34,120 nucleotides of DNA from Phycisphaeraceae bacterium (GTDB lineage: Bacteria; Planctomycetota; Phycisphaerae; Phycisphaerales; Phycisphaeraceae): the NCBI GenBank assembly GCA_947471825.1, contig CANIYR010000001.1:1-34120 (forward strand). The letters run 5' to 3'. The first letter of the stretch is position 1, and every line of letters starts with the position of its first letter. This document shows, in pieces, positions 9,386-21,796 of this stretch. Below the pieces are notes generated by a model. It was given only the letters and a program-made list of their open reading frames with translations, was not told where the DNA came from and did no database searches. The position numbers and the translations under genes are program-made.

Positions 9386-11899
9386 TCACCGGTAAACAAA
9401 CCAGGCGGTGGCGGTGCAGTCCCGGTCGGCGCTGACCCGCACCCAGTGGGCGGCAAAGTCGGCGGGGAACGCATGGTTCAGTTCCTGGCCGGCCTTGAGC
9501 TTGAAAGTCATGACTTTGTGGAATCCGCTGAGCAGGTCGAAGTCCGCCTCCAGCGTCACCGTGCAATCGCGGTTGGCCAAGAGGCGCAGGCTTTTTTGGT
9601 CGTAGCCATTCATCAAGTACGGGTCAGACGGCACGCCGGCTTTGACCGCGCTGTCCTTCCACGGGCCGCCGGTGCCCACCGGCTTGCCCAACTGCCACAG
9701 GTCGTCGATCGCGCCCAGCCACAGGGCGGTCTTGCCATCGGCCGATTTGACCACATGGTCCGAGGCCGGCGCCGCCGGATTGACGCCGGAAAGCACGAGC
9801 AAGCCGCGCCAAGTGGCGTAATCCATGATTTGCTTGTTGTGGGTGCAGACCGGCTTCATCTTGGCGTACAGCGCGGGCTGGCCGACCACCCAGAACGGCA
9901 CTTCGTAAAAAGTGCCGTGGATGTTGGCCATCAGGCGCTCCGAAAGGATTTCGCGGTGGGCGCGCGGGGTGCCTTGCGCAAACGCCTTGTCAAAGGCGGC
10001 GTCGCCCTTGGGCAGGCGCAGGGTTTTGCCTTCGGAATGGAGGATCACCGAGGCGCCGTCCACGCTGAAGGACGCTTCCGGCTTGAGGAAGTCGCGCAGC
10101 GGCGTCCGGGGGTCGGCCAGGCCCTTCTTGTTGCCCCAGGCGGCGGAACCGAGGACGGCATCGGCGACGGTCTGCTCTTGGGTGGCGGGCACGAATGCGA
10201 GGCTGAGCTCATTGAGTTCAAGGGCGCCGCCGCCGGCATTGAAAACGCCAAGGTTGCGGTTGATGCGGTTGGGGAACAGAAGCGGCGCGCTGACCGGATC
10301 GGTGCTGGCGGCGTCGGGGATGGCGGCGAACAGTTCGCGGCCCTTGCCGCCTTCGTGCCTGGGCTCGTTGCCGAGCTGGAAGCCGACCGAGGCGCGGCAG
10401 TCAGCACTGGACCTCACGCGTATCCATTGCGCTGGCGGCAGGCTCAGGGTGGCGCTGCCGCCGGCGGTGACATCCACCGAGCCGGCGGGGGTCCACTTTC
10501 CGTCGCCCTTGGCGTCGATTTCAAGGCTGAAGCGGGTGGCCGCATCGGCGCTGAAGTGGCCCAGGCGCCGGGAGAACCCGTTGATCAGGAAGGGCGTGGA
10601 GTCTTCGCCGGATTTGACCGCGTCATGGGCCCAGATCGAGCCTGCGGCACTGGCTTCGCCCCAGGTGGCCAGGTCGTCATAAGAACCGAACCACAGGTTG
10701 GATTGCGGCTGGCCGCAGAGCGGATTGCCCTGGATCGAGGCTTCGTCGCAGCCCAGGACCAGCCGGTCGCCCCACTGGCAGAAATCCGGGATGTAGCGCA
10801 GGTGGCGGCCGATCGGCGTGATGCCGGCGGTGCGGCCGGGGGCGAAATCCTTGGGGAAGTCAAAGAACAGGCCGTGCATGTCCATCAGGCAGCGGCCGCC
10901 GCCGATCTCGCGGATGCGCGGCCATTCGGTGAACCAGCCGTGGGCGGCGTCGTTGTTGAGGCAGCCCTTGGGCAAAAGAAAGCAATGAAACATGCCGTCC
11001 TTGAGCACCTGCAGGCGCACCGCCCGTTTGTCCCAGCCGATGGTCCACAGCGGCAGGTCGCGGCCGGCGGCCGTCGGCGCGATGCCTTCGGGCCCGGTGA
11101 TGTCGGTGTATTGGCGCTGCTCGACGATTTGCCAGGTTTTGCCGTCAAAGGTGGCCAGGCAGCCGCGGTCCTCCGGGCCGAGCGTACCCGGGTCGGCGAC
11201 CTTCCAGTCCTTCTTCGGATCAAGGGCGCCGCTCTTGCCGTTGTTGGCCACCACCAGCAAACCCTGCGCGCAGTAAGCGCCCTTGCCGTGTTCGCCCGGG
11301 ACGGGGTTGTGGAACAGTTTGGTCACCGCCAGCGACCGCACATCCACCTCGTAGAGCATGCCCTCCATGTCGTACATGTAGGCCTTGTTGGCCGGGTCGG
11401 AGAGGTGGCGCGCCCAGGCGGTGACGCGACCGGGCATATCCTTGACCGGGATGACGCGCAATTCGCCCTTCTCGCTGATGGCGTAGTGGCCGATGAAGAG
11501 CTGCTTCGACTCAGCGTGGATCATGCGGCCGGCCGGGGTGCCCCCGACGGACTCCGAGCGCAGGATCATCTTCTTGTTTTCATCGATTTCGTAGAGTTTG
11601 TGCTGAGAGCCGTGCGGCTGATGGGGCGCATAGGTCACCATCCACAGTTTGCCCGCCCAGGGCACCAAGGCACCGATGCCGCATTCCTCGTGTCCCGCGG
11701 CGTTGAACAGGCCGTCGGCGCGGCTTTGGGAGTAGGCGGTCAGGTGCGGATAGACGCCGCTGATCTGGCGGGTGCCGGAGGACGAGGTGATTTCTTCGCG
11801 GCCATTGACCATTCCGGTGGTGACGGTGGCAGGGCTGTCGCCCGCCGCGGCGACGGCGGCGAAGAGCGAGAAAAGCAGGGCCGGGGTGGCGTGGCGCAT
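9386..11899 (-). CDS. Unknown secreted protein with an internal duplication (837 aa)
   Basis: The start at 11899 gives a clean signal peptide (MRHATPALLFSLFAAVAAAG), so the protein is exported. The body is rich in Gly, Trp and Tyr with many short beta-strand-like stretches, suggesting a beta-propeller followed by beta-sandwich modules. Residues 336-510 and 655-837 are repeats of each other. They share an HG-F-(D/E)-P pattern near the start, then DDL-W-G, then D-AVK-G with P(F/Y)L(I/M)NG, and end in an (I/W)VR-S-DC-A segment. No catalytic motif or known family is recognised. It is the last gene of an operon with an exported FAD oxidoreductase (34-base gap) and a metallophosphoesterase, so a role in extracytoplasmic glycan or metabolite handling is plausible but unproven. 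Confidence 0.8.
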   Translation of the reverse strand: MRHATPALLFSLFAAVAAAGDSPATVTTGMVNGREEITSSSGTRQISGVYPHLTAYSQSRADGLFNAAGHEECGIGALVPWAGKLWMVTYAPHQPHGSQHKLYEIDENKKMILRSESVGGTPAGRMIHAESKQLFIGHYAISEKGELRVIPVKDMPGRVTAWARHLSDPANKAYMYDMEGMLYEVDVRSLAVTKLFHNPVPGEHGKGAYCAQGLLVVANNGKSGALDPKKDWKVADPGTLGPEDRGCLATFDGKTWQIVEQRQYTDITGPEGIAPTAAGRDLPLWTIGWDKRAVRLQVLKDGMFHCFLLPKGCLNNDAAHGWFTEWPRIREIGGGRCLMDMHGLFFDFPKDFAPGRTAGITPIGRHLRYIPDFCQWGDRLVLGCDEASIQGNPLCGQPQSNLWFGSYDDLATWGEASAAGSIWAHDAVKSGEDSTPFLINGFSRRLGHFSADAATRFSLEIDAKGDGKWTPAGSVDVTAGGSATLSLPPAQWIRVRSSADCRASVGFQLGNEPRHEGGKGRELFAAIPDAASTDPVSAPLLFPNRINRNLGVFNAGGGALELNELSLAFVPATQEQTVADAVLGSAAWGNKKGLADPRTPLRDFLKPEASFSVDGASVILHSEGKTLRLPKGDAAFDKAFAQGTPRAHREILSERLMANIHGTFYEVPFWVVGQPALYAKMKPVCTHNKQIMDYATWRGLLVLSGVNPAAPASDHVVKSADGKTALWLGAIDDLWQLGKPVGTGGPWKDSAVKAGVPSDPYLMNGYDQKSLRLLANRDCTVTLEADFDLLSGFHKVMTFKLKAGQELNHAFPADFAAHWVRVSADRDCTATAWFVYR

Positions 11900-11933
11900 G
11901 GGATTTTGGAGGTGGCGTCGTGCGGCGGAGGTC

Positions 11934-13868
11934 TTACGGATTGGCGGACGGCGGCAGCACGCCACGGGTGATCTTTTCGCGCAGTTCCGGCAGGGCCTTT
12001 TCATACACCCCGCGCGGATCCAGGTGGTTACGCTTGGCAATGCCGGCGGCCAGGCCCACCACCTCGCCCATCATGCCGCAGGTGCGCATCACGCGCACGG
12101 CCCCCAGCGCTTCGTGGGTCACGCTGATGTCCCGGCCGGCCATCCACAGGTTGGCGATGTTGCGGCTGTAGAGCGCGCGGTAGGGCACCCAGTACGGGCC
12201 TTTGTAGCGGTATTGGGCCGACTCGGTGGCGCGCGAGATGAACGGGTCGGCGCCGTTGGCGGTCTTGTAGGCGGGGTCGGGCAGGTGCAGGTCCAGGTGC
12301 CAGGTGCAGGGGAAGGCGGCATCCGGGTAGGCCTTGGCTTGGCGGAAGTCCTCGCCACTCACGATGACATCGCCCAAGAGGCGGCGCGATTCGCGTTTGC
12401 CGGCGATGAAGGCCGCCCAGGCAAGCTGGCTGTCGGGGTAGGCGCCATCCACATTCTTGAGGGCATCCCAGGCGCCGTACATGGCGCGCAGGTTCTGGTC
12501 GCGCATCAGTTCCACTTCATTGATCGGGTCGCGGTCGAAGCCGGCTTCCCAGAACCACGAGCCCAGGTTGCGGGTGCCGGCCGGCTCCCATTGGCCGGCG
12601 TGCTTGCCGCGGCCCGGGAACGGCGTCTCGGTCAGATCCACCGCCCATGGGCAGCGCGGGAAGGCCACGGGCTGGGGTGTCCGGGCCGTCTCTTTCGAGA
12701 GCGGCTCGTCGAGGTCCTTGCAGTCGCAGCCCAACTGCTGGGCCCACGGGTTGCTGACGCCCATGTGGCCCTCGGGCGTGATTTCAAAATCGGCGCCGGC
12801 CATGGCCCCCACGCAGGCGTCGCCGGTGGCGTCCACAAAGTGGCTGCCGCCGATTTGCAGGCGCCGGCCGCTCTTGATGTCCTGCGCGGTCACCGACTGG
12901 ATGCGGCCGCCCTTGGCGGCCACCGCGTTGACGCGCATGCCGGTCAGCAGGTGCAGGCCGGGTTGGTTCTCGACCACTTTGAGCCGGCGCACATCCTCGT
13001 TTTTCAGGCCCTGCATATGCGCCAAGGGATCCGGGTTTTGGCAGGCCACCGCACTTTTACGGCTGCCGTCGAACTCGCCCACCAGATTGCCGATGGCCGG
13101 CCAAGGTTTCTGGTGCAGCAAACCCTCGATGCGCACGCCGACCTCGCTCGAACCGTTGCCGCCCAGCACAAAGCGGTCCTGGATCAGCGCGACCTGCAAG
13201 CCTTCGCGCGCGGCGGCCACCGCGGCGCAGGTGCCGGCGATGCCGCCGCCGACCACCACCAGGTCATACTGGCCGCCGTCTTCGGGCTGTGCCGGCAGGC
13301 CGAGCTGGGCGCGCCGCCACGGGGCCGCAGCCGGGCCGGCCTCCGGCGGTGTCCAAGCCGTGTCGGGGGCAAACAGCAGGGCGTCGCAGCGGCCCTCAAA
13401 GCCGGTCAGGTCGTGCAGGCTGATTTGGTTTTCGGCGGCCAGGTCCACCAGGCCGCCATCCTGCCAGTGCCACTGCGCGCCCTCGGTGCCGAATTCGGCG
13501 GCCACGGCGGCGCCGTTGACCCGCACCTGAAAGCGGCCCGGCGCACCCTTGGCGCCCCACGGCGCGACCCAGTCTTTGGTGCGCACCCACAGGCGGTGGC
13601 GGCCCGGCGTCGCCTTGAACATCGTTTGCGCGTCTTTCACCGGCCGCCCCAGTCCGTGGGCCAGCAGGTAGGGCGAACCCATCTGGTCCATGAACTGCTG
13701 GTCGAGCGCCCAGCCGCCCAAATCGCGGAAGGCTTCCGCCTCCAGCAGGATCGGGGTGGCCGGGCCGGTTGCGGCGGGCGCCGTGCGGGAGGCGGCCTGC
13801 GGCGTGCTGCCGCAAGCGGCAAGAACGGCGCATGACAAGGCGGCGGAGCCAAGGAGGACGTTGCGCAT
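11934..13868 (-). CDS. Exported FAD-dependent oxidoreductase with N-terminal beta-sandwich domain (lipoprotein, 644 aa)
   Basis: The N-terminus MRNVLLGSAALSCAVLAACG has a lipobox (LAAC), predicting a lipid-anchored exported protein. Residues about 40-175 resemble a carbohydrate-binding-like beta-sandwich (LLEAEAFRDLGGW, GRHRLWVRTKDW, GRFQVRVNG). A Rossmann-type FAD-binding motif follows at about residue 205 (LVVVGGGIAGTCAAVAAAREG), then VLGGNGSSEVGVR and FVDATGDACVGAMAGADFE, typical of the FAD_oxidored (PF12831-like) group found in PVC bacteria and Bacteroidetes. The C-terminal NLWMAGRDIS...GMMGEVVG closes the FAD fold. It is the middle gene of the operon, 7 bases after the metallophosphoesterase gene. 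The substrate is probably a sugar or polyol, by analogy only. An exported flavoprotein must receive FAD either before export by Tat or outside. A twin-arginine motif is not visible. Confidence 0.88.
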   Translation of the reverse strand: MRNVLLGSAALSCAVLAACGSTPQAASRTAPAATGPATPILLEAEAFRDLGGWALDQQFMDQMGSPYLLAHGLGRPVKDAQTMFKATPGRHRLWVRTKDWVAPWGAKGAPGRFQVRVNGAAVAAEFGTEGAQWHWQDGGLVDLAAENQISLHDLTGFEGRCDALLFAPDTAWTPPEAGPAAAPWRRAQLGLPAQPEDGGQYDLVVVGGGIAGTCAAVAAAREGLQVALIQDRFVLGGNGSSEVGVRIEGLLHQKPWPAIGNLVGEFDGSRKSAVACQNPDPLAHMQGLKNEDVRRLKVVENQPGLHLLTGMRVNAVAAKGGRIQSVTAQDIKSGRRLQIGGSHFVDATGDACVGAMAGADFEITPEGHMGVSNPWAQQLGCDCKDLDEPLSKETARTPQPVAFPRCPWAVDLTETPFPGRGKHAGQWEPAGTRNLGSWFWEAGFDRDPINEVELMRDQNLRAMYGAWDALKNVDGAYPDSQLAWAAFIAGKRESRRLLGDVIVSGEDFRQAKAYPDAAFPCTWHLDLHLPDPAYKTANGADPFISRATESAQYRYKGPYWVPYRALYSRNIANLWMAGRDISVTHEALGAVRVMRTCGMMGEVVGLAAGIAKRNHLDPRGVYEKALPELREKITRGVLPPSANP

Positions 13869-13875
13869 AAAGGTC

Positions 13876-14883
13876 TCAGGTGGTCTGCCCGGCTTTCCAG
13901 TGGCGGGCGCTGATTTTTGGGGTGATGAGGGCGGATTCTTGCGCCGTCATCTTGACTTTCAGATCCTGCGGCGAGGGGCCGACCCAGCGGGTCTGCATGC
14001 CCTCGATTTCCAGCGTGCCGGCGGCTGCATCCACCGTGAGCACGGCCCACAGCGGTCCCTCGTACGGGCAGGTGCTCGCCAGGGAAGGGCATTTTTTGTG
14101 GATCTCTTCCGACATGCTGCGGTGCGTGTGCCCGCCCACCCAGTAGTAGGAGGCGCTGTTGATCTCCACGCACGGAATGCCTTGGGGCGCGCGGAAACTG
14201 TCCTGGTGCAGGTGGCCCGACACGCAGGCCAGGATGCGGGCGGTGCCGGCGGCTTGGTTGGCCTTGGCCAGAAGATCGAGCAATTGCTTGCCGTCGTGCA
14301 GGCAGTTTTCCGGCGGCTGGTGGACGAACACCAAAACCGGCAGGCGGTCGGTGGCAAGCAAGGCATCCAGCCAATCCAACTGCTCTTGGCCGAGCGAACA
14401 GGCGTAGCCCTTGACTTTCGGGTTGGGGATGTTGCCATCCAAGAACACCAAGCGCACGCCGTTTGTCACCACGCTGTAATGGCAGGCCGGCATGCCGAAG
14501 GCGGCGGCGGCCGCCGTGCGTTGGAAGCCGCCATCCGTGTCATGGTTGCCCAAGACGCTGTGACGCGGCAGGTCGAGGCCGCGCCAGCCGGCCAGAAGCG
14601 CGGCATTGCGCGGGTGCGGCGTGGCGAAGTCGCCCAATTGCACCACGGCGTCCACCTGGCCTGCGCGGGCCGCGGCCAGAAACGCCGCGAGCCGCTCGGG
14701 CCCGTCGGGCATCACATCGTTGTGCAGGTCGGCAATCAGTGCAAGTTTGAGGCGCCGGCCTTGGGCCGGCGCGGCGGCCTGCGGGGTGCCGCAGCCCCAT
14801 TCGAGGCCCAGCGCCGCGCCGGCGACCAGGGTGGTCTTGAGGAAGGTGCGCCGGGTGTGCGGGGGCGGGGTGGGGGGTGGCAT
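13876..14883 (-). CDS. Tat-exported calcineurin-like metallophosphoesterase (335 aa)
   Basis: The N-terminus contains RRTFLKTTLVAGAALGLEWGC, a twin-arginine signal followed by a hydrophobic stretch and a possible lipobox, so the folded enzyme is probably exported and perhaps lipid-anchored. The metallophosphoesterase blocks occur in order: IADLHND (D-x-H), QLGDFATP (G-D), LGNHDTD (G-N-H-D), FVHQPPE and SGHLHQD (G-H-x-H). All metal ligands of the dinuclear site are present. Members cleave phosphomono- or diesters, and some act on nucleotides or phospholipids. It heads the three-gene operon, with 7 bases to the FAD oxidoreductase gene. The 93 bases upstream before the RAYT-like gene presumably hold its promoter, but none is obvious. 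Confidence 0.92.
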   Translation of the reverse strand: MPPPTPPPHTRRTFLKTTLVAGAALGLEWGCGTPQAAAPAQGRRLKLALIADLHNDVMPDGPERLAAFLAAARAGQVDAVVQLGDFATPHPRNAALLAGWRGLDLPRHSVLGNHDTDGGFQRTAAAAAFGMPACHYSVVTNGVRLVFLDGNIPNPKVKGYACSLGQEQLDWLDALLATDRLPVLVFVHQPPENCLHDGKQLLDLLAKANQAAGTARILACVSGHLHQDSFRAPQGIPCVEINSASYYWVGGHTHRSMSEEIHKKCPSLASTCPYEGPLWAVLTVDAAAGTLEIEGMQTRWVGPSPQDLKVKMTAQESALITPKISARHWKAGQTT

Positions 14884-14976: not shown

Positions 14977-16179
14977 TCACCCCTTCAACTTCGCCACCCG
15001 CACCCACTGCGCCGCAAACGCGGCGGCGTTCAAGCCCAGCGCGGCCAGCGCCGCTCCCATCGCACTTTCCAAATCGGGCGTCTCCGGCGCCTTGGCCCGG
15101 CCCGGCGCGGAAAGCGGCAGGTGCGGCCAGGTTTTGGCTTTCGCCACCAATGCGTCGAGCAACTTGAGGTATTTGCCCAGCGGCAGCCATGACAGGATGC
15201 CCTTGGGTGCGGAGGGTGCAAACATCGGCGCGTCCTCGCGCAGGGCCAGCAGCCAGAAGGTGGCCGGCCCGGCGGGCTGCGGCATGGCCGCATCACCCAT
15301 CGGGGGAAGCACTGCGCCATCCATGCCCATCCCAGCCATGGTCGGCGTGGGATAAGCCATGCCCGGCATGTCTGGCATCGGCATACCGCCCATACCGCCC
15401 ATTCCCGGCATATCCACCGGCGGCATGGCGGGCGGCGGCGCCGCTTCCGCGTCCACGCCGGCCGCATCGCGCAGTGGTTGCGCCACCTCCGGCCCGTACA
15501 CCGCCGCTTCATCCTGCGCCGGCAGCGCATCGCCGTTCATGCCGTAGATCGCTTGGTAACGGCCCACCCGCGCATGCAGGCTGGTGAAGGGCTCTGCCTC
15601 CGGCCGCTCTCCGCCGGCATCCACCACGGCGCGCAGATCCACGAACGCCATCGCGCCGGCCACCGCGCTCGCATCGGCCAAGGGCGCCATGTGAAAGCGC
15701 CCTTGCCAAATGCTGCCGCGCCGCTGGTTTTCCCAGTTGATCTTCTGCGCCAGCATCTGCTTGAACTGCTTCATGAACATCGACAAACTGCCGAGTTTTT
15801 GACGGATCGCCGCCGCGTCAGGAACCCTGGGAACGCGGGCCTCCAGACCCGCACCCATCCCCGCCACCGCTTCTGCTTGCGTTCCCATCTTCCCCTGCGG
15901 CGGATGCGCCAAAAGCCAGCGCCGCACGGCCTCGGCATCATCCCAAGCCTGCGACTCGCCCGGCACCCACTGCAACACCAGGTGGAACTGCGCGTCTTCG
16001 AGCGCAAAGGCCTGCACCTTGACCGCATAACTCTGCGCCAACCGCTTGAGCAATTTCTGCGCCCAGACTTTGAGCTTGTCGTCCGCCAGCAAGGCCAAGC
16101 CCGGAGCCATCCGGCTCCACAGGTGGAAGCAGTGGAGGGGTGGGGCTTGGGCGAGCTGGGTGCGGCGGGGGATGAGCAT
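14977..16179 (-). CDS. RAYT-like (Y1_Tnp family) protein with a degenerate HUH motif and a Met-rich insert (400 aa)
   Basis: The protein follows the layout of REP-associated tyrosine transposases common in planctomycetes: CFHLWSRM near the N-terminus, then KRLAQSYAVKVQAFALEDAQFHLVLQ, then WDDAEAVRRW, then LSMFMKQFKQMLAQKIN with GSIWQGRFH, then AFVDLRAVV and EPFTSLHARV, ending in a helical GLNAAAFAAQWVRVAKL. In active enzymes the second block ends N-H-x-H. Here it reads A-Q-F-H (residues 63-66), so the first His of the HUH metal site is lost. Residues about 247-302 are an inserted stretch rich in Met, Gly and Pro. Three upstream ATGs are in frame, but the promoter at 16193-16221 overlaps them, so MLIPRRTQ (16179) is chosen. 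No inverted-repeat ends flank the gene. It may be a domesticated, non-transposing protein. Confidence 0.78.
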   Translation of the reverse strand: MLIPRRTQLAQAPPLHCFHLWSRMAPGLALLADDKLKVWAQKLLKRLAQSYAVKVQAFALEDAQFHLVLQWVPGESQAWDDAEAVRRWLLAHPPQGKMGTQAEAVAGMGAGLEARVPRVPDAAAIRQKLGSLSMFMKQFKQMLAQKINWENQRRGSIWQGRFHMAPLADASAVAGAMAFVDLRAVVDAGGERPEAEPFTSLHARVGRYQAIYGMNGDALPAQDEAAVYGPEVAQPLRDAAGVDAEAAPPPAMPPVDMPGMGGMGGMPMPDMPGMAYPTPTMAGMGMDGAVLPPMGDAAMPQPAGPATFWLLALREDAPMFAPSAPKGILSWLPLGKYLKLLDALVAKAKTWPHLPLSAPGRAKAPETPDLESAMGAALAALGLNAAAFAAQWVRVAKLKG

Positions 16180-16192
16180 GAGGGATAAGAAA

Positions 16193-16221
16193 ATCATAGG
16201 TACAGACCTCATAAGTGTCAA
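16193..16221 (-). promoter_or_regulatory. Near-consensus promoter of the RAYT-like gene
   Basis: On the minus strand TTGACA (16216-16221), exactly 17 bases, then TATGAT (16193-16198). The ATG at 16179 is 13 bases after the -10 box, giving a leader of about 6-7 bases. The box overlaps the more upstream in-frame ATG codons, which decides the start. Confidence 0.8.
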
Positions 16222-16310
16222 TTTTTAAAATTTTTCCATGGAAATGTAATGAGCCGACACCTTCACCCATCTCGCACTTCTGAATTCCGCCCTTTCACCA
16301 AGCTTTCATC

Positions 16311-19076
16311 ATGTCGAACAAATTCCGGACCCATCCCGCCCTGCCGTACATCCTGATGGTCGCCGCCGTGGTGGGCACCATCGGTCTGACCTTGGCGGCC
16401 CTGCCGTTCCTGACCAACCTGGCCCCATCGCCGCTCGCAGGTGGTGGCGCTGCCGCCGATGAACCGGTGGCGGAACTTCCCGCCGATGGCTGGGGCAGTC
16501 TTACGGTGCCCGCCGCCAAAGCCGCGGGAGTGGCCAAGGACGCCGCCGTCTTGCCGCCGGAGTTGTTCGCCCTGCCAGGCGACCTGGAGATCACCCTGTG
16601 GGCCAAGTCACCGCAGTTGTTCAACCCGACCAACATGGACATCGACGCCAAGGGCCGCATCTGGGTGACCGAGGGCCGCAACTACCGCGGCTCCCGCAAG
16701 GCCCCGCCGGAGGGCGACCGCGTGGTCATCCTGCAAGACAGCGACGGCGACGGGGTGGCTGACAAGTCCACCGTGTTCTACCAGGGCAAGGATCTCAGCG
16801 CGCCGCTTGGCATCGCGGTCATCGGCAACGAGATTTATGTTTCCATGTCGCCCAACCTGATCAAGTTCACCGATGTGGATGGCGACGGCGTGTTCAATCC
16901 CGCCGTGGACAAGAAGGAGGTTTTCCTGACCGGTTTCTCCACCTCCAACCACGACCACACCCTGCACGCGGTCACGGCCGGCCCGGACGGCGACCTGTAT
17001 TTCAACAGTGGCAACGAAGGCTTCGATGTCAAGGGGCCCGACGGCCGGCGCTTCACCAACGACGGCAAGCCGGGCGCCGACGGCCACCCGTCGCCGCAGG
17101 GTGTGGCCTTCCGCGTCAAGGCCGATGGCACCGGCCTGCAGCCGATCGGCTGCAATTTCCGCAACAGCTACGAGCAGTCGGTGACATCCTTCGGCGATGT
17201 GTTCATGAACGACAACGACGATGCCCAGGGCTGCCGCACCTCGTGGATGATGGAAGGCGCCGATTTCGGCTACCACACCAGCGACGGCCGCATGCACTGG
17301 CAGGCGGTGCGCCGCCCGGGCCAGCCCATGCCGCAGGCGCACTGGCGCCAGGCCGACCCCGGCGTTTCGCCGGCCGGCGACATCTACGGCAGCGGCGCGC
17401 CCACCGGCATCGCCTTCTATGAAAACGGCGCCCTGCCCGACCGCTACCTGGGCACCCTGCTCAGTTGCGAATGCGCCCTCAACACCCTTTTCGGTTACCA
17501 GCCGCGCCTCTCCAAGGCCGGCTTCACCCTGCAGCGCCATGACTTTTTGACCTCCAACAGCGGCAAGCAGTTCAGCGGCACCGATTCCACCGGCAGGAAG
17601 CAGGTCGCCGACCCGCTCAAGACCTGGTTCCGCCCCGCCGATGTGACCGTCGGCCCCGACGGCGCCCTGTATGTCTGCGACTGGTACGACGCCCGCGTCG
17701 GCGGCCACCAGACCTTTGACGGCCAGTGCCTGGGCGGCATCTACCGCATCGCGCCCAAGGGCTTCAAACCCAAGGTGCCGGCCCTTGATCTCAAGAGCGT
17801 GCCCGGCATGATTGAAGCGCTTGGGAACCCGACCCCGAATGTCCGCGTGCTGGGCTTCCGCGCGCTGGTGGCGCAGGGCGAAGCGGCCATCGGGCCGGTC
17901 AAGGCGTTGCTCTTGGACAAGAACCCCTACATCCGCGCCCGCGCCGTCTGGGTCTTGGCGCGCCTGGGCGAAGGCGGCGCCCAGGAGGCCGAAGCGCTTC
18001 TGCGCAGCCCGGAGGCGCCCCTGCGCATCACGGCCTTCCGCGCCCTGCGCCGCGCCGGCGCGCCGGTCCTGAAGCATGCCGCCCTTTTGGCCCGCGACCC
18101 TTCTCCTGCCGTCCGCCGCGAGGCGGCCCTGGCCCTGCGCGACCTGCCCCTGGCCGACACCCGCGAGATCCTGGCCAACCTGGCCCGCGGCTACGACGGC
18201 GCCGACCGCCATTACCTGGAGGCCTTCGGCAAAGCCTGCGCCGGCCATGAGGAGGAGGTCTACGCCATGCTCAAGACCGCGCTGGTCCAGCCGGATCCGC
18301 AGCAGTGGAACGACGCCTTCGCCGGCATCGCCTGGCGCCTGCACCCGGCATCCGCCGTGGCCGACCTGCAAGCGCGCGCCCTGGCGCCCCAATTGAGCCG
18401 CGCCGCCCGCCTGCAGGCGCTCGACGCCCTGGCCTTCATCCCCACCCGCGAAGCCGCCGCGGCCGCCCTGTCCATTGCGCAAAGCGGCGCCGATGACACC
18501 TACAACCAGGCGCATTTCTGGCTCGGCAACCGCCGCGGCAGTTATTGGAAGGGCCTTGGCATCGACGCCGGCCACGCCGCACTGAGCCGCAAGGTCAAGC
18601 CGGAGGCGGTGGCCGACGCCTCCTTCAAACTCGCCAATGTCACGCTGTCGCCGCAGGGCATCAAGGGGCGCGACGTGTTCCTTGGCCGGGGCACCTGCGT
18701 GGCCTGCCACAAGGTGGGGGACCAGGGCCGTGAAATCGCCCCCGACCTGTCTTTTGTCGGCGCCAAGTACAACGCCGCCGTGATCAAAGAATCCATGGTT
18801 GATCCAAGTTCCGCCATCGTCTTCGGCTACGAGACCACCACCCTGCGCACCAAGGACGGCAAGGAGCACCAGGGCTTCCTGCGTTCGGAGCGCGACCCGG
18901 TGACCCTTCAGGATTTCACCGGCGCCATGCAGGCCTTCCCCGAGGCCGACATCGTCTCGCGCGAAACCTCGCCGCAATCGCTGATGCCCTCGGCCAAGGC
19001 CCTCAACCTGAGCGATGCCGATCTGCAGGCTTTGGCCGACTTCTTCATCGAGGTCGCCGGCCAGGAGCGGAAATGA
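16311..19076 (+). CDS. PVC-type heme-binding CxxCH protein: dehydrogenase-like propeller, HEAT-like repeats, cytochrome c domain (921 aa)
   Basis: A large membrane-anchored redox protein. Residues 12-36 form one membrane segment. Residues about 85-475 form a soluble dehydrogenase-like beta-propeller (TIGR02604-like), with ITLWAKSPQLFNPTNMDIDAKG, DSDGDGVADK, DVDGDGVF and GPDGALYVCDWYDA. The D-x-D-G-D repeats look like calcium sites. Residues 490-750 consist of HEAT-like helical repeats (NPYIRARAVWVLARLG, PSPAVRREAALALRDLP). The C-terminal cytochrome c domain has the heme attachment site CVACH at about residue 796 (TIGR02603-like), and a Met near the end (SLMPSAKALN) is a likely sixth ligand. 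Such proteins are specific to the PVC group and are thought to pass electrons from sugar oxidation into the envelope. It heads a four-gene sugar operon. Confidence 0.93.
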   Translation: MSNKFRTHPALPYILMVAAVVGTIGLTLAALPFLTNLAPSPLAGGGAAADEPVAELPADGWGSLTVPAAKAAGVAKDAAVLPPELFALPGDLEITLWAKSPQLFNPTNMDIDAKGRIWVTEGRNYRGSRKAPPEGDRVVILQDSDGDGVADKSTVFYQGKDLSAPLGIAVIGNEIYVSMSPNLIKFTDVDGDGVFNPAVDKKEVFLTGFSTSNHDHTLHAVTAGPDGDLYFNSGNEGFDVKGPDGRRFTNDGKPGADGHPSPQGVAFRVKADGTGLQPIGCNFRNSYEQSVTSFGDVFMNDNDDAQGCRTSWMMEGADFGYHTSDGRMHWQAVRRPGQPMPQAHWRQADPGVSPAGDIYGSGAPTGIAFYENGALPDRYLGTLLSCECALNTLFGYQPRLSKAGFTLQRHDFLTSNSGKQFSGTDSTGRKQVADPLKTWFRPADVTVGPDGALYVCDWYDARVGGHQTFDGQCLGGIYRIAPKGFKPKVPALDLKSVPGMIEALGNPTPNVRVLGFRALVAQGEAAIGPVKALLLDKNPYIRARAVWVLARLGEGGAQEAEALLRSPEAPLRITAFRALRRAGAPVLKHAALLARDPSPAVRREAALALRDLPLADTREILANLARGYDGADRHYLEAFGKACAGHEEEVYAMLKTALVQPDPQQWNDAFAGIAWRLHPASAVADLQARALAPQLSRAARLQALDALAFIPTREAAAAALSIAQSGADDTYNQAHFWLGNRRGSYWKGLGIDAGHAALSRKVKPEAVADASFKLANVTLSPQGIKGRDVFLGRGTCVACHKVGDQGREIAPDLSFVGAKYNAAVIKESMVDPSSAIVFGYETTTLRTKDGKEHQGFLRSERDPVTLQDFTGAMQAFPEADIVSRETSPQSLMPSAKALNLSDADLQALADFFIEVAGQERK

Positions 19077-19180
19077 GCCGGCAAGGCCAAAATCGCAGGC
19101 GGCCGTAAACTTTCGCACGGCCAAGCGTCCGTTCTTCCTGAATTCCCCGCATCCACTTGGTTCCGCCTTTGAGACACCCC

Positions 19181-20134
19181 ATGATCAACCCGCTCAAACT
19201 GTTGCTGCCCCTGGTCCTGTTGGCCTGCACGCCCGCGGCCTTGACGGCGGAGGACGCCGCCCCCGCACCCAAGCCCAAGAAGATCGTCTTCATCGCCGGC
19301 AGTCCCAGCCACGGTTACGGCAACCATGATTTCAAATCCGGCTGCAACCTGCTGGCCAAACTGCTCAACGAATCGGGCCAGCCGGTCAAGGCCGAAGTGT
19401 GCTACCCTGGCTGGCCCAAGGACGCCTCCATCTTGGCCGATGCCGACGCCATCGTGGTCTATGCCGACGGCGGCCGGGGCAATCCGCTGATCCCGCATTT
19501 GAAGGAACTTGACGCCTTGGCCAAAAAGGGCGTGGGCATCGGCATGATGCACTACGCCGTCGAGTGCCCCAAGGGCGAAGCTGGCGACAAATTCATGGAA
19601 TGGACCGGCGGTTTTTATGAAACCCTGCACTCCTGCAATCCGATGTGGGAGGCCGATTTCAAATCCTTCCCAGACAACCCGGTCACCCGCGGCGTCACGC
19701 CGTTCCGCGCCATGGATGAATGGTATTTCTGCCTGAATTTCGCCGAAAGCCCGGTCAAGCCCACGCCCATCCTGCGCGCCACGCCGTCGGATGCCGTCCG
19801 CAACGGCCCCTATTCCGGCCCGGCCGGACCCTACAAGCACATCCAGGAAGCCAAGGGCCGGACCGAGACCCTGATGTGGACCCTGGTGCGCCCCGAGGGC
19901 GGGCGCGGCTTCGGTTTCACCGGCGGCCACAAGCATTGGAACTGGGGCAAGCCCCAGCAGCGCGCCGTGATCCTCAACGCCATCGTCTGGATTGCCGGGC
20001 TGGAGGTCCCCGCCGGCGGCGTGCCGAGCCCCAAGCTCACCTTCAAGGATCTTGACACGAACATGGACGAAGCCAAGCCGGCCCATTTCGATTCCGCCGC
20101 CGTTGAGAAGCAACTCGCCGAGTGGCAGAAATAA
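19181..20134 (+). CDS. ThuA-like domain protein, exported (317 aa)
   Basis: The start at 19181 gives a signal sequence MINPLKLLLPLVLLACTPAALTAED, in which LLAC is also a possible lipobox. The ThuA-like (PF06283) class I glutamine-amidotransferase-type fold follows: KKIVFIAGSPSHGYGNHDF, then YADGGRGNPL, KKGVGIGMMHYAVE (His at the nucleophile-elbow region), DEWYFCLNF, and the C-terminal GFGFTGGHKHWNWG. ThuA was named from trehalose utilisation in rhizobia, where the protein helps process 3-keto-trehalose, but its chemistry is unclear. The gene is 104 bases after the heme-protein gene and 33 bases before the epimerase-like gene, so it is probably co-transcribed. An upstream in-frame codon at 19157 is less likely because it would spoil the signal peptide. 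Confidence 0.92.
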   Translation: MINPLKLLLPLVLLACTPAALTAEDAAPAPKPKKIVFIAGSPSHGYGNHDFKSGCNLLAKLLNESGQPVKAEVCYPGWPKDASILADADAIVVYADGGRGNPLIPHLKELDALAKKGVGIGMMHYAVECPKGEAGDKFMEWTGGFYETLHSCNPMWEADFKSFPDNPVTRGVTPFRAMDEWYFCLNFAESPVKPTPILRATPSDAVRNGPYSGPAGPYKHIQEAKGRTETLMWTLVRPEGGRGFGFTGGHKHWNWGKPQQRAVILNAIVWIAGLEVPAGGVPSPKLTFKDLDTNMDEAKPAHFDSAAVEKQLAEWQK

Positions 20135-20167
20135 CCTTTCAGAAACAACCTTCCAAGAGCCCCACCC

Positions 20168-21025
20168 ATGAAACTCGGACTCAACCTGCTGCTGTGGACC
20201 GGCCATGTCACCGAAGAACATTTCCCGCTGATCCGTCGTATCAAGGCGGCCGGCTTCGATGGCGTGGAAGTGCCGCTGTTCGAGGGCTCGCCCGCCCACT
20301 ACGCCCGCCTCGGCGCCTTTCTGAAAGATGAGGGCCTGGCCTGCTCGGCGGTGGCCATCATTCCCGACGAGTCGAAGAGCCCCATCAGCCCGGTCCCGGC
20401 GCACCGCCAGGCGGCCATCGATCACCTGCGTCACGCGGTCGACTGCTCGGCGGCCCTGGGCGCCGATGTGCTGATGGGCCCCTTCCATTCGCCGCTGGGC
20501 GTGTTCAGCGGCCAGGGCCCCACCGAAACCGAGAAGCAGCACGGTGCCGCGGTTCACCGCGCCATGGCCGAGCATGCGCAAGCCGCCGGCGTCCTGTGCG
20601 TGCTGGAATGGCTCAACCGTTTCGAGTGCTACTTTCTCACGACCATGGACGATGCCGCCGCCTACGCGCGGCTGGTCAATCATCCGTCCTTCACGACCAT
20701 GCACGACACCTTCCACGCCAACATCGAGGAGAAGGATGTGGTCGCCAGCATCCGCCGCAACATCGCGCACATCGGCCATGTGCACATTTCCGAGAACGAC
20801 CGCGGCACGCCGGGCCGTGGCCACATCGATTTCCTGCCGCAATTGCAGGCCCTGCGTGCGGGCGGCTACGACGGCTGGCTGACCATCGAAGCTTTCGGCC
20901 GCGCCCTGCCCAGCCTGGCCGCCGCCACCCGCGTGTGGCGCGATTTCTTCCCCTATGCCGACGAGGTTTACCTGGAAGGCGGGCCGTTTGTCCGCAAACT
21001 CTGGGCACAGGCCGCCCCGCGCTGA
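20168..21025 (+). CDS. Ketose 3-epimerase-like TIM-barrel isomerase (285 aa)
   Basis: The protein resembles D-tagatose/D-psicose 3-epimerases. The four metal ligands lie in family motifs: Glu in LEWLNRFE, Asp in MHDTFHANIEE, His in GHVHISENDRGTPGRGHIDF, and Glu in LTIEAFG. The NRFE, HANIEE and ENDRGTPG blocks are particularly diagnostic. The family uses Mn2+ or Co2+ to invert C3 of free ketoses, and relatives act as 3-keto-sugar isomerases or lyases. No signal peptide is present, so this is a cytoplasmic step inside an operon whose other members are exported. The start directly at MKLGLNLLLWTGHV agrees with the family. The gene at 2907-3902 belongs to the same superfamily but to a different subgroup. 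Confidence 0.92.
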   Translation: MKLGLNLLLWTGHVTEEHFPLIRRIKAAGFDGVEVPLFEGSPAHYARLGAFLKDEGLACSAVAIIPDESKSPISPVPAHRQAAIDHLRHAVDCSAALGADVLMGPFHSPLGVFSGQGPTETEKQHGAAVHRAMAEHAQAAGVLCVLEWLNRFECYFLTTMDDAAAYARLVNHPSFTTMHDTFHANIEEKDVVASIRRNIAHIGHVHISENDRGTPGRGHIDFLPQLQALRAGGYDGWLTIEAFGRALPSLAAATRVWRDFFPYADEVYLEGGPFVRKLWAQAAPR

Positions 21026-21079
21026 CGCCCGACACCTTTTTACACCGCCTCGGCCACCCCTTTTTTGGAAAGACAATCC

Positions 21080-21796
21080 ATGTTCAAACGCCCCTTGATG
21101 ATGGCCGCCTCAGCACTTGTTCTTGTCGCCTTCGGCGCGTTGGCTGCCGATGACGGCGAGAAACTGTTCAACGGCAAGGACCTCGCCGGCTGGGAAGGCA
21201 ACCCGGCCTTCTGGAAGGTCGAGGATGGCACCCTCACCGGGGAATCCGGCGGCGCCAACCCCTGCAACAAAACCACCTTTCTCATCCTCAAGGACCGCCA
21301 GGTCGGCGATTTTGAGCTGACCGCCCGATTCCGTTTTCTCTCCGATCAGGGCAACTCCGGCATCCAGTACCGCAGCACCGTGGCCGATGCCAAGGCGTTC
21401 GATGTCAAGGGCTACCAGGCCGATTTCGAAGCGGGACCGACCTACACCGGCATCCTTTACGAGCAGGGTGGGCGGGGCATCCTGGTCAACCGCGGCGACA
21501 AGATGGAGATAGCCGCCGACGGCACCCGCAAGGTCACCGGGCATTTTGAGAATGTCAAAGGGCTCAAACTTGAAAAAGGCCGCTGGTACACCCAGCGCAT
21601 CATCGCCAAGGGCAGCCACCTGATCCAGGAGATTGACGGCGTGCGCACCATGGAGGTGGTGGACAACGACGCCAAGCGCAGCGCCAGCCGCGGCTGCCTG
21701 GCGCTTCAGTTGCATGCCGGGCCGGCCATGAAGGTGCAGTTCAAGGACATCGTGCTGAAAGAAACCCCCGCCGAAGGGGCGAAGCCCGCGAAGTGA
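21080..21796 (+). CDS. DUF1080 (3-keto-disaccharide hydrolase-like) secreted protein (238 aa)
   Basis: A Sec signal peptide (MFKRPLMMAASALVLVAFGALAAD) precedes a single DUF1080/PF06439 domain, a concanavalin-like beta-sandwich. Key strands are visible: LFNGKDLAGWEG, FWKVEDGTLTGES, FELTARFRF, NSGIQYRS, GYQADFEAGP, LYEQGGRGIL, ITxEIDGVR-like sequence near QEIDGVRTMEVVD, and GCLALQLHAGPAMKVQFKDI. Some characterised members cleave 3-keto-glycosides. It ends the operon and is followed by a strong terminator. Export suggests that the keto-glycoside is made outside the cytoplasm, perhaps by the heme protein, before the cytoplasmic epimerase acts. The frame extends five codons upstream to a TTG at 21065, but the ATG fits the signal peptide better. 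Confidence 0.92.
   Translation: MFKRPLMMAASALVLVAFGALAADDGEKLFNGKDLAGWEGNPAFWKVEDGTLTGESGGANPCNKTTFLILKDRQVGDFELTARFRFLSDQGNSGIQYRSTVADAKAFDVKGYQADFEAGPTYTGILYEQGGRGILVNRGDKMEIAADGTRKVTGHFENVKGLKLEKGRWYTQRIIAKGSHLIQEIDGVRTMEVVDNDAKRSASRGCLALQLHAGPAMKVQFKDIVLKETPAEGAKPAK

What the first reader, a model, noticed from the sequence alone, without database searches (positions are those of the whole stretch)
16311..21796. Four-gene operon for oxidative breakdown of a glycoside, with envelope and cytoplasmic steps
A heme-c/propeller membrane protein, a ThuA-like protein, a ketose 3-epimerase-like enzyme and a DUF1080 protein are collinear, with 33-104 base gaps and one terminator. Three of the four have a signal sequence or membrane anchor and the epimerase does not. 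From family knowledge, some DUF1080 members cleave 3-keto-glycosides and ThuA is linked to keto-trehalose use. The arrangement suggests oxidation and cleavage of a glycoside outside the cytoplasm, without a glycoside hydrolase, followed by uptake and isomerisation. The substrate and the role of the heme protein are unknown.
Basis: partly seen in the sequence, partly recalled or inferred. Interest (0 to 1): 0.72.

Follow-up and report, generated by a model that had tools for sequence, protein, structure and literature searches.

The report
Sugar-oxidising glycoside-cleavage operon in PVC bacteria
Four neighbouring genes encode what looks like an envelope machine that breaks sugar-sugar bonds by oxidising the sugar first; the same gene set recurs, often fused into single proteins, across Planctomycetota and Verrucomicrobiota, and its likely oxidising part is an unusual haem-linked enzyme whose cofactor is unknown.

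Summary
In detail: four same-strand genes (16311-21796) with gaps of 104, 33 and 54 bases and one strong terminator. They encode a TIGR02604 propeller-HEAT-cytochrome c protein, a ThuA protein, a ketose-3-epimerase-like TIM barrel and a DUF1080 (3-keto-disaccharide hydrolase) protein. Among 80 GTDB loci chosen only by ThuA similarity, the recurrent same-strand neighbours are DUF1080 (34 loci), the propeller (19), the epimerase (18) and cytochrome c (11). The usual order there is epimerase-DUF1080-ThuA-propeller-cytochrome, a permutation of the window's. DUF1080-ThuA, ThuA-propeller, DUF1080-propeller-cytochrome and DUF1080-ThuA-propeller occur as single reading frames. The propeller's top structural matches are all PQQ sugar dehydrogenases, with the catalytic His/Arg/Asn retained, so the heme protein is the likely dehydrogenase. 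Two PQQ-site residues are lost, and module hosts lack pqqC, so the cofactor is open. A published protein of the same architecture releases glucose from lactose. No Gfo/Idh or GMC dehydrogenase and no transporter is in the operon. The epimerase could instead be a keto-glycoside eliminase or hydratase. Verdict: a new variant of the known 3-keto-glycoside strategy; chemistry and substrate are untested.

The parts
16311..19076 (+). PVC-type heme protein: membrane anchor (aa ~13-33), sGDH-like propeller (aa ~86-484), HEAT repeats (aa ~498-740), cytochrome c domain (aa ~785-911); proposed glycoside dehydrogenase with built-in electron acceptor
   Evidence: TIGR02604/TIGR02603/HEAT_2; Foldseek top hits PQQ sugar dehydrogenases; profile match to sGDH E 6.6e-7
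18696..18710 (+). CVACH heme c attachment motif (aa 796-800)
   Evidence: sequence; alignment to diheme cytochrome 7zs0
19181..20134 (+). ThuA-like exported protein (possible lipoprotein)
   Evidence: PF06283; invariant H47, H127, Y128, D182, E183, H253, H255 across 12 module ThuA domains, numbered in the 320-aa translation from 19172 (subtract 3 for the ATG start at 19181)
20168..21025 (+). Cytoplasmic xylose-isomerase-like TIM barrel, ketose 3-epimerase-like; four metal/catalytic residues E147, D180, H206, E241 intact
   Evidence: PF01261; best PDB hit D-allulose 3-epimerase 5zfs, E 4.5e-33, with 3-keto-D-glucoside 4-epimerase 6wn6 at 8.5e-16; residues fully conserved in module copies
21080..21796 (+). 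Exported DUF1080 / 3-keto-disaccharide hydrolase family protein; proposed glycosidic-bond-cleaving step
   Evidence: PF06439 116.6 bits
21829..21861 (+). Intrinsic-terminator-like stem-loop (bidirectional) closing the operon
16222..16310 (+). Divergent intergenic region expected to hold the operon promoter (no consensus + strand promoter found)

Best explanation
The operon encodes a two-compartment oxidoreductive glycoside-cleavage module. The membrane-anchored propeller-HEAT-cytochrome c protein oxidises a sugar hydroxyl of a glycoside (most likely C3) on the envelope side and passes the electrons to its own c-heme and on to the respiratory chain. The exported DUF1080 protein, with the ThuA protein as a further processing or positioning enzyme on the same keto-glycoside, breaks the glycosidic bond by elimination/hydration rather than by a classical glycoside hydrolase. 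The released keto-sugar enters the cell through an importer that is not in the operon, and the cytoplasmic TIM barrel epimerises, hydrates or isomerises it for central metabolism. Shown here: the gene set, its wide co-conservation and fusions, the dehydrogenase-like fold and retained catalytic residues, the intact metal site of the TIM barrel. Inferred: reaction order, C3 specificity, the ThuA role, the uptake step, the substrate.
For: (1) Neighbourhood: in 80 GTDB loci picked by ThuA similarity alone, DUF1080 lies within 5 kb in 34, propeller 19, epimerase 18, cytochrome c 11; 34/35, 20/20, 17/18 and 12/12 hits respectively are on the same strand, and epimerase hits occur only within 5 kb although flanks reach 10 kb. 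(2) Order is permuted between the window (heme-ThuA-epimerase-DUF1080) and Verrucomicrobiota (epimerase-DUF1080-ThuA-(ThuA-)propeller-cytochrome), so the set, not just one ancestral string, is kept. (3) Single reading frames DUF1080-ThuA (19), ThuA-propeller (4) and ThuA-propeller-cytochrome (3) in those loci, DUF1080-propeller-cytochrome in relatives, and DUF1080-ThuA-propeller in G059. (4) Clustering of all neighbours finds no other family as recurrent; no Gfo/Idh or GMC dehydrogenase recurs, leaving the propeller-cytochrome as the only redox part. (5) The propeller model's top 17 PDB matches are PQQ sugar dehydrogenases (sGDH 1.4e-12, AA12, Asd); sGDH D143-H144 and R228-N229 align with D215-H216 and R284-N285, kept in 18 of the 20 module-family copies checked. 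(6) In Verrucomicrobiota propeller and cytochrome are separate adjacent genes, as for a catalytic and an electron-transfer subunit. (7) A published protein of identical architecture (Lac161_ORF7, Chthoniobacter cosmid) released glucose from lactose, Km 1.8 mM, and its cosmid restored lactose growth in Sinorhizobium but not E. coli (PMC5342196). (8) DUF1080 proteins act genetically with the periplasmic lactose 3-dehydrogenase LacABC in Caulobacter (PMC9007349). (9) In this genome another DUF1080 gene sits beside a HEAT-cytochrome c gene, an MFS sugar transporter, a TIM barrel and a Gfo/Idh-like start, and two more flank a TAT-exported Gfo/Idh protein.
Against: K377 and R408 of sGDH are not kept, and pqqC was found in 0 of 151 relatives and 0 of 37 module-carrying genomes, while the same search rang over cut-off in 2 of 392 genomes of the phylum; so if it is a quinoprotein it must scavenge PQQ, or it uses another cofactor, or it is not a dehydrogenase. 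Linkage is common, not universal: 33 of 80 ThuA loci have no other module gene within 5 kb (14 of 33 where both flanks are at least 4.5 kb). The Lac161_ORF7 authors called it a beta-galactosidase and used a glucose-oxidase/peroxidase readout, which cannot separate hydrolysis from oxidation plus release. Most of the Verrucomicrobiota epimerases are only about 30% identical to the window's. No transporter in the operon.
Confidence: 0.6

Rival explanations
1. The propeller-heme protein is itself a glycosidase or lyase: the propeller cleaves the glycoside without net oxidation (as claimed for Lac161_ORF7), and the c-heme has a structural or sensing role. DUF1080 and ThuA are auxiliary sugar-binding or debranching proteins.
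For: Lac161_ORF7 released glucose from lactose in vitro; metal-dependent propeller lyases and lactonases (virginiamycin B lyase, Drp35) also match the fold; an extra conserved H214/H216/H219 cluster could bind a metal; no PQQ synthesis in hosts.
Against: Quinoprotein sugar dehydrogenases rank above all lyases in both structure searches; separable adjacent cytochrome c genes and repeated cytochrome c fusions argue for electron transfer; the glucose-oxidase assay does not exclude oxidative release.
Confidence: 0.17
2. The TIM barrel, not DUF1080, is the bond-breaking enzyme or the hydratase: it is a Mn2+-dependent 3-keto-glycoside eliminase or keto-glycal hydratase of the AtOGE/AtHYD type acting in the cytoplasm, and the exported proteins oxidise and trim the substrate before uptake. 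(Partly compatible with the best explanation.)
For: AtOGE and AtHYD are annotated sugar-phosphate isomerase/epimerase TIM barrels in 3-keto-glycoside operons (PMC10628242); the window protein keeps a full metal site; 6wn6, a 3-keto-D-glucoside 4-epimerase, is a detectable relative.
Against: Closest solved relatives are free-ketose 3-epimerases; AtOGE (8BVK) is not among its sequence matches; DUF1080 is the more constant partner of ThuA and the heme protein.
Confidence: 0.3
3. The four genes are a lineage-specific assembly of expanded PVC families with no single pathway; TIGR02604, DUF1080 and ThuA are so abundant in these genomes that they often fall side by side.
For: Relatives carry up to 80 first-look candidates for the heme protein and many DUF1080 genes.
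Against: This genome has only one TIGR02604 protein over cut-off and one such ThuA and epimerase; strand bias, distance peaks and fusions in many genomes cannot come from abundance alone.
Confidence: 0.05

Closest known systems
Periplasmic 3-keto-glycoside pathway of Caulobacter (LacABC lactose 3-dehydrogenase plus DUF1080 hydrolase) (PMC9007349)
   Same: Exported DUF1080 protein; membrane/periplasmic oxidation; sugar epimerase-type genes nearby
   Different: No LacA-type dehydrogenase and no transporter in this operon; the redox protein is an sGDH-fold propeller with HEAT and c-heme; ThuA present
BT2157-type 3-ketotrehalose hydrolase locus of Bacteroides thetaiotaomicron (BT2157 from PMC9007349; the wider locus from general knowledge)
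   Same: DUF1080 keto-glycoside hydrolase; TIM-barrel partner (from general knowledge)
   Different: Bacteroides uses Gfo/Idh/MocA oxidoreductases (from general knowledge); none here
Agrobacterium GlycDH-OGE-HYD operon (PMC10628242)
   Same: Oxidation, bond cleavage, hydration logic; TIM-barrel metalloenzyme
   Different: TIM barrels do elimination and hydration there; no DUF1080, ThuA or heme propeller reported in that operon
Soluble PQQ glucose dehydrogenase / AA12 pyranose dehydrogenase / aldose sugar dehydrogenase
   Same: Six-bladed-propeller fold, catalytic His and Arg-Asn pair
   Different: K377 and R408 equivalents missing; host lacks pqqC; HEAT repeats and cytochrome c attached
Lac161_ORF7 'novel beta-galactosidase' (AGW45552, PMC5342196)
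   Same: Same three-domain architecture TIGR02604 + HEAT_2 + cytochrome c
   Different: Reported as a hydrolase; its operon context was not analysed in the text read here; sequence not available for comparison
Rhizobial thuAB trehalose/maltitol system (general knowledge)
   Same: ThuA family protein
   Different: ThuB, a Gfo/Idh-type dehydrogenase (general knowledge), is absent; here ThuA carries a signal sequence and is fused or paired with DUF1080

Membership tests
3-keto-glycoside cleavage pathway (LacABC/DUF1080 or BT2157 type) | DUF1080 / 3-keto-disaccharide hydrolase protein | tested here: met
   PF06439, 116.6 bits vs cut-off 26.8
3-keto-glycoside cleavage pathway (LacABC/DUF1080 or BT2157 type) | A Gfo/Idh/MocA or GMC/LacA-type glycoside 3-dehydrogenase in the operon | tested here: not met
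   None among the four genes and none recurrent in 80 related loci; Gfo/Idh genes do occur at other DUF1080 loci of this genome
3-keto-glycoside cleavage pathway (LacABC/DUF1080 or BT2157 type) | Production and cleavage of a 3-keto-glycoside | not testable with these tools
   needs enzymology
sGDH/AA12 quinoprotein sugar dehydrogenases | Six-bladed propeller of the sGDH type | tested here: met
   Foldseek top 17 matches, best E 1.4e-12; profile E 6.6e-7; TM about 0.55-0.7
sGDH/AA12 quinoprotein sugar dehydrogenases | Catalytic His144 and Arg228-Asn229 | tested here: met
   H216 and R284-N285, kept in 18 of 20 module-family copies
sGDH/AA12 quinoprotein sugar dehydrogenases | PQQ-binding Lys377 and Arg406/Arg408 | tested here: not met
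   R441 matches R406; K377 and R408 positions hold other residues (hand alignment in this part)
sGDH/AA12 quinoprotein sugar dehydrogenases | PQQ synthesis in the host | tested here: not met
   pqqC 0/151 relatives, 0/37 module genomes; positive control 2/392 in the phylum over cut-off; own genome 78% complete; scavenging not excluded
PVC-type heme-binding CxxCH proteins (TIGR02604/TIGR02603) | Both domains over curated cut-offs, CxxCH present | tested here: met
   385.7/122.2 and 98.2/68.15 bits; CVACH
ThuA (PF06283) | Score above gathering cut-off | tested here: met
   47.6 vs 33.4 bits
thuAB trehalose system | Adjacent ThuB-type dehydrogenase | tested here: not met
   no Gfo/Idh in operon
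D-psicose/D-tagatose 3-epimerase | Four metal/catalytic residues (Glu, Asp, His, Glu) | tested here: met
   E147, D180, H206, E241
D-psicose/D-tagatose 3-epimerase | Equivalog cut-off of NF051856 | tested here: not met
   129 bits vs 300

The most novel reading that the evidence does not exclude
The TIGR02604 propeller-cytochrome proteins of PVC bacteria are a new class of glycoside dehydrogenase: sGDH fold, direct electron transfer to c-heme, but a cofactor other than self-made PQQ (scavenged PQQ, a His-bound metal, or another). They work with DUF1080 and ThuA as one envelope machine that opens glycosidic bonds without glycoside hydrolases.
Probability: 0.35. Interest if true: 0.8.

Novelty: new variant of a known kind. 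Interest (0 to 1): 0.64.

Why it matters
TIGR02604 heme proteins are hugely expanded in some Planctomycetota and have no established role. Tying them by fusion and operon to 3-keto-glycoside hydrolases gives a concrete, testable function (glycoside dehydrogenase with built-in electron sink). It would also explain a reported 'beta-galactosidase' activity of a protein with no glycoside hydrolase fold, and add a hydrolase-free route to polysaccharide and glycoside breakdown in major marine and soil degraders.

Tried and rejected
Longest-ORF gene calling on high-GC loci gave many antisense artefacts and was replaced by codon-scored calling and six-frame HMM searches. Codon-scored calls still missed genes in low-GC loci, so counts use the six-frame search. 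Fold searches and profile hits to NHL/Pizza propellers reflect one repeat and were ignored; the sGDH match was isolated with a sub-region profile. An RNA-family scan of the operon was empty. No paper in the library holds both DUF1080 and ThuA. Considered and dropped: that PQQ use can be asserted from fold alone (missing residues and missing pqqC), and that chance adjacency of expanded families explains the cluster.
Full report
OBSERVATION. All four genes are present as described: a 921-aa membrane-anchored TIGR02604 propeller / HEAT / TIGR02603 cytochrome c protein, a 317-aa exported ThuA protein, a 285-aa leaderless TIM barrel of the ketose 3-epimerase kind, and a 238-aa exported DUF1080 protein. 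Gaps are 104, 33 and 54 bases and a 14-pair terminator-like stem-loop follows. The gene upstream is divergent and the one downstream is convergent, so this is a plausible single transcription unit, though no consensus + strand promoter was found.

IS IT MORE THAN CHANCE? In this 1.5-Mb partial genome the heme protein, this ThuA and this epimerase each have one clear copy. Eight of 151 relatives carry this ThuA, and it lies beside DUF1080 and a heme propeller in most of them (G023, G059, G063, G075; beside DUF1080 in G071 and G017). I then picked 80 named GTDB loci by similarity to the ThuA profile alone and asked what lies around them with profiles built from the relatives. DUF1080 is within 5 kb in 34 loci, the propeller in 19, the epimerase in 18, the cytochrome c in 11, nearly always on the same strand and at fixed distances (DUF1080 mostly 0-1 kb upstream, epimerase mostly 1-3 kb upstream, propeller about 1-2 kb downstream, cytochrome c about 3-4 kb downstream). 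No epimerase hit lies beyond 5 kb. An unbiased clustering of all neighbours finds no other family as recurrent. The usual order there, epimerase-DUF1080-ThuA-propeller-cytochrome, is a permutation of the window's order. The linkage is not universal: 33 of 80 loci (many on short contigs; 14 of the 33 with good flanks) have none of the partners close by. Two kinds of epimerase take part: 48-60% identical in four loci, about 30% in the rest.

FUSIONS. Single open frames hold DUF1080-ThuA (19 of the 80 loci, plus several relatives), ThuA-propeller(-cytochrome) (7), DUF1080-propeller-cytochrome (relatives G102, G144, G138, G094; one Verrucomicrobiae locus, L174) and DUF1080-ThuA-propeller (G059). 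Such fusions are strong evidence that the parts act on the same substrate in the same place, which must be the cell envelope, since DUF1080, ThuA and the heme protein all carry export signals in the window. The epimerase never appears fused to them in these data, in keeping with a cytoplasmic location.

WHAT THE HEME PROTEIN IS. The propeller profile finds soluble PQQ glucose dehydrogenase (E 6.6e-7) over a stretch that aligns D143-H144 and R228-N229 of that enzyme with D215-H216 and R284-N285 of the window protein. A predicted propeller model (mean pLDDT 77, pTM 0.83) has PQQ sugar dehydrogenases as its top 17 PDB matches; the full-length model (mean pLDDT 74, pTM 0.70) gives the same (top 14). 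H216, R284 and N285 are kept in 18 of the 20 module-family copies checked; two (L112, L114) have Gln in place of the His. By hand alignment R406 is kept (R441) but K377 and R408 are not. The PQQ-synthesis marker pqqC is absent from 151 relatives and 37 module-carrying genomes, while the same search rings over cut-off in 2 of 392 genomes of the phylum. So the fold and catalytic triad point to a sugar dehydrogenase, but PQQ dependence is not supported, and an additional conserved H214/H219 pair leaves room for a metal. In Verrucomicrobiota the propeller and a HEAT-cytochrome c protein are separate adjacent genes, which reads most naturally as catalytic subunit plus electron acceptor. The roles given to the sGDH residues rest on general knowledge of that enzyme.

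PUBLISHED FUNCTIONAL CLUES. Lac161_ORF7, a metagenomic protein with exactly this architecture from a Chthoniobacter-like cosmid, released glucose from lactose (Km 1.8 mM), and its cosmid restored growth on lactose in Sinorhizobium but not in E. coli (PMC5342196). The authors called it a new beta-galactosidase; the glucose-oxidase/peroxidase readout used would not separate hydrolysis from oxidation followed by release. DUF1080 works genetically with the lactose 3-dehydrogenase LacABC in Caulobacter (PMC9007349). In Agrobacterium, TIM barrels annotated as sugar isomerases are in fact a 3-keto-glycoside eliminase and a putative keto-glycal hydratase (PMC10628242), so the 'isomerase' of the window may do one of these jobs.

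OWN-GENOME CONTEXT. Other DUF1080 genes of this genome sit beside a TAT-exported Gfo/Idh protein (contig C8) and, on contig C135, beside a HEAT-cytochrome c gene, an MFS sugar transporter, a TIM barrel and the start of a Gfo/Idh-like gene. This supports a keto-glycoside setting for DUF1080 here and offers one possible importer, although none is in the operon studied.

MECHANISM. Best model: envelope oxidation by the propeller with electrons to c-heme; bond breaking by DUF1080 with ThuA; uptake by an unlinked transporter; cytoplasmic conversion by the TIM barrel. Shown: gene set, linkage, fusions, fold, retained residues. Inferred: C3 regiochemistry, reaction order, ThuA chemistry, uptake, substrate. 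The main rivals are a propeller that cleaves without oxidation, and a TIM barrel that does the cleavage or hydration.

NOVELTY. The strategy (oxidise, then cleave) is known. This version, with an sGDH-fold/c-heme protein in place of Gfo/Idh or GMC dehydrogenases and with ThuA as a fixed partner, was not found described in the library searched, so I call it a new variant of a known kind.

Noticed in passing
9386-11905 (-): Protein with no Pfam or NCBIfam match whose 58% (over 408 aa) homologue lies between the ThuA/DUF1080/heme module and the epimerase on contig C73 of relative G063; it may be a fifth partner of the module.
   Followed up: partly
14977-16221 (-): Possible transposase-like protein (a guess by eye, no family match) divergent from the operon; an 85% identical copy (411 aa) sits next to the DUF1080 cluster on contig C8 of the same genome.
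   Followed up: partly
L178 (G000:C135): Second DUF1080 gene directly downstream of a HEAT-cytochrome c gene and followed by an MFS sugar transporter, a TIM barrel and a Gfo/Idh-like start: a possible complete uptake and oxidation cluster in the same genome.
   Followed up: partly
L088, L089, L093, L095, L174: Giant single-chain DUF1080-propeller-cytochrome c proteins (about 1,180-1,370 aa), apparently common in one family of the order.
   Followed up: partly
L112:11019-12152, L114:11556-12689: Module propellers with Gln instead of the catalytic-position His and an altered DNDD loop: possibly inactive or differently acting copies.
   Followed up: no
11934-13868 (-): FAD_oxidored (PF12831) protein with a lipoprotein-like N-terminus and a long N-terminal extension, next to a TAT-signal metallophosphoesterase (13876-14883); not seen near the module in relatives.
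   Followed up: partly
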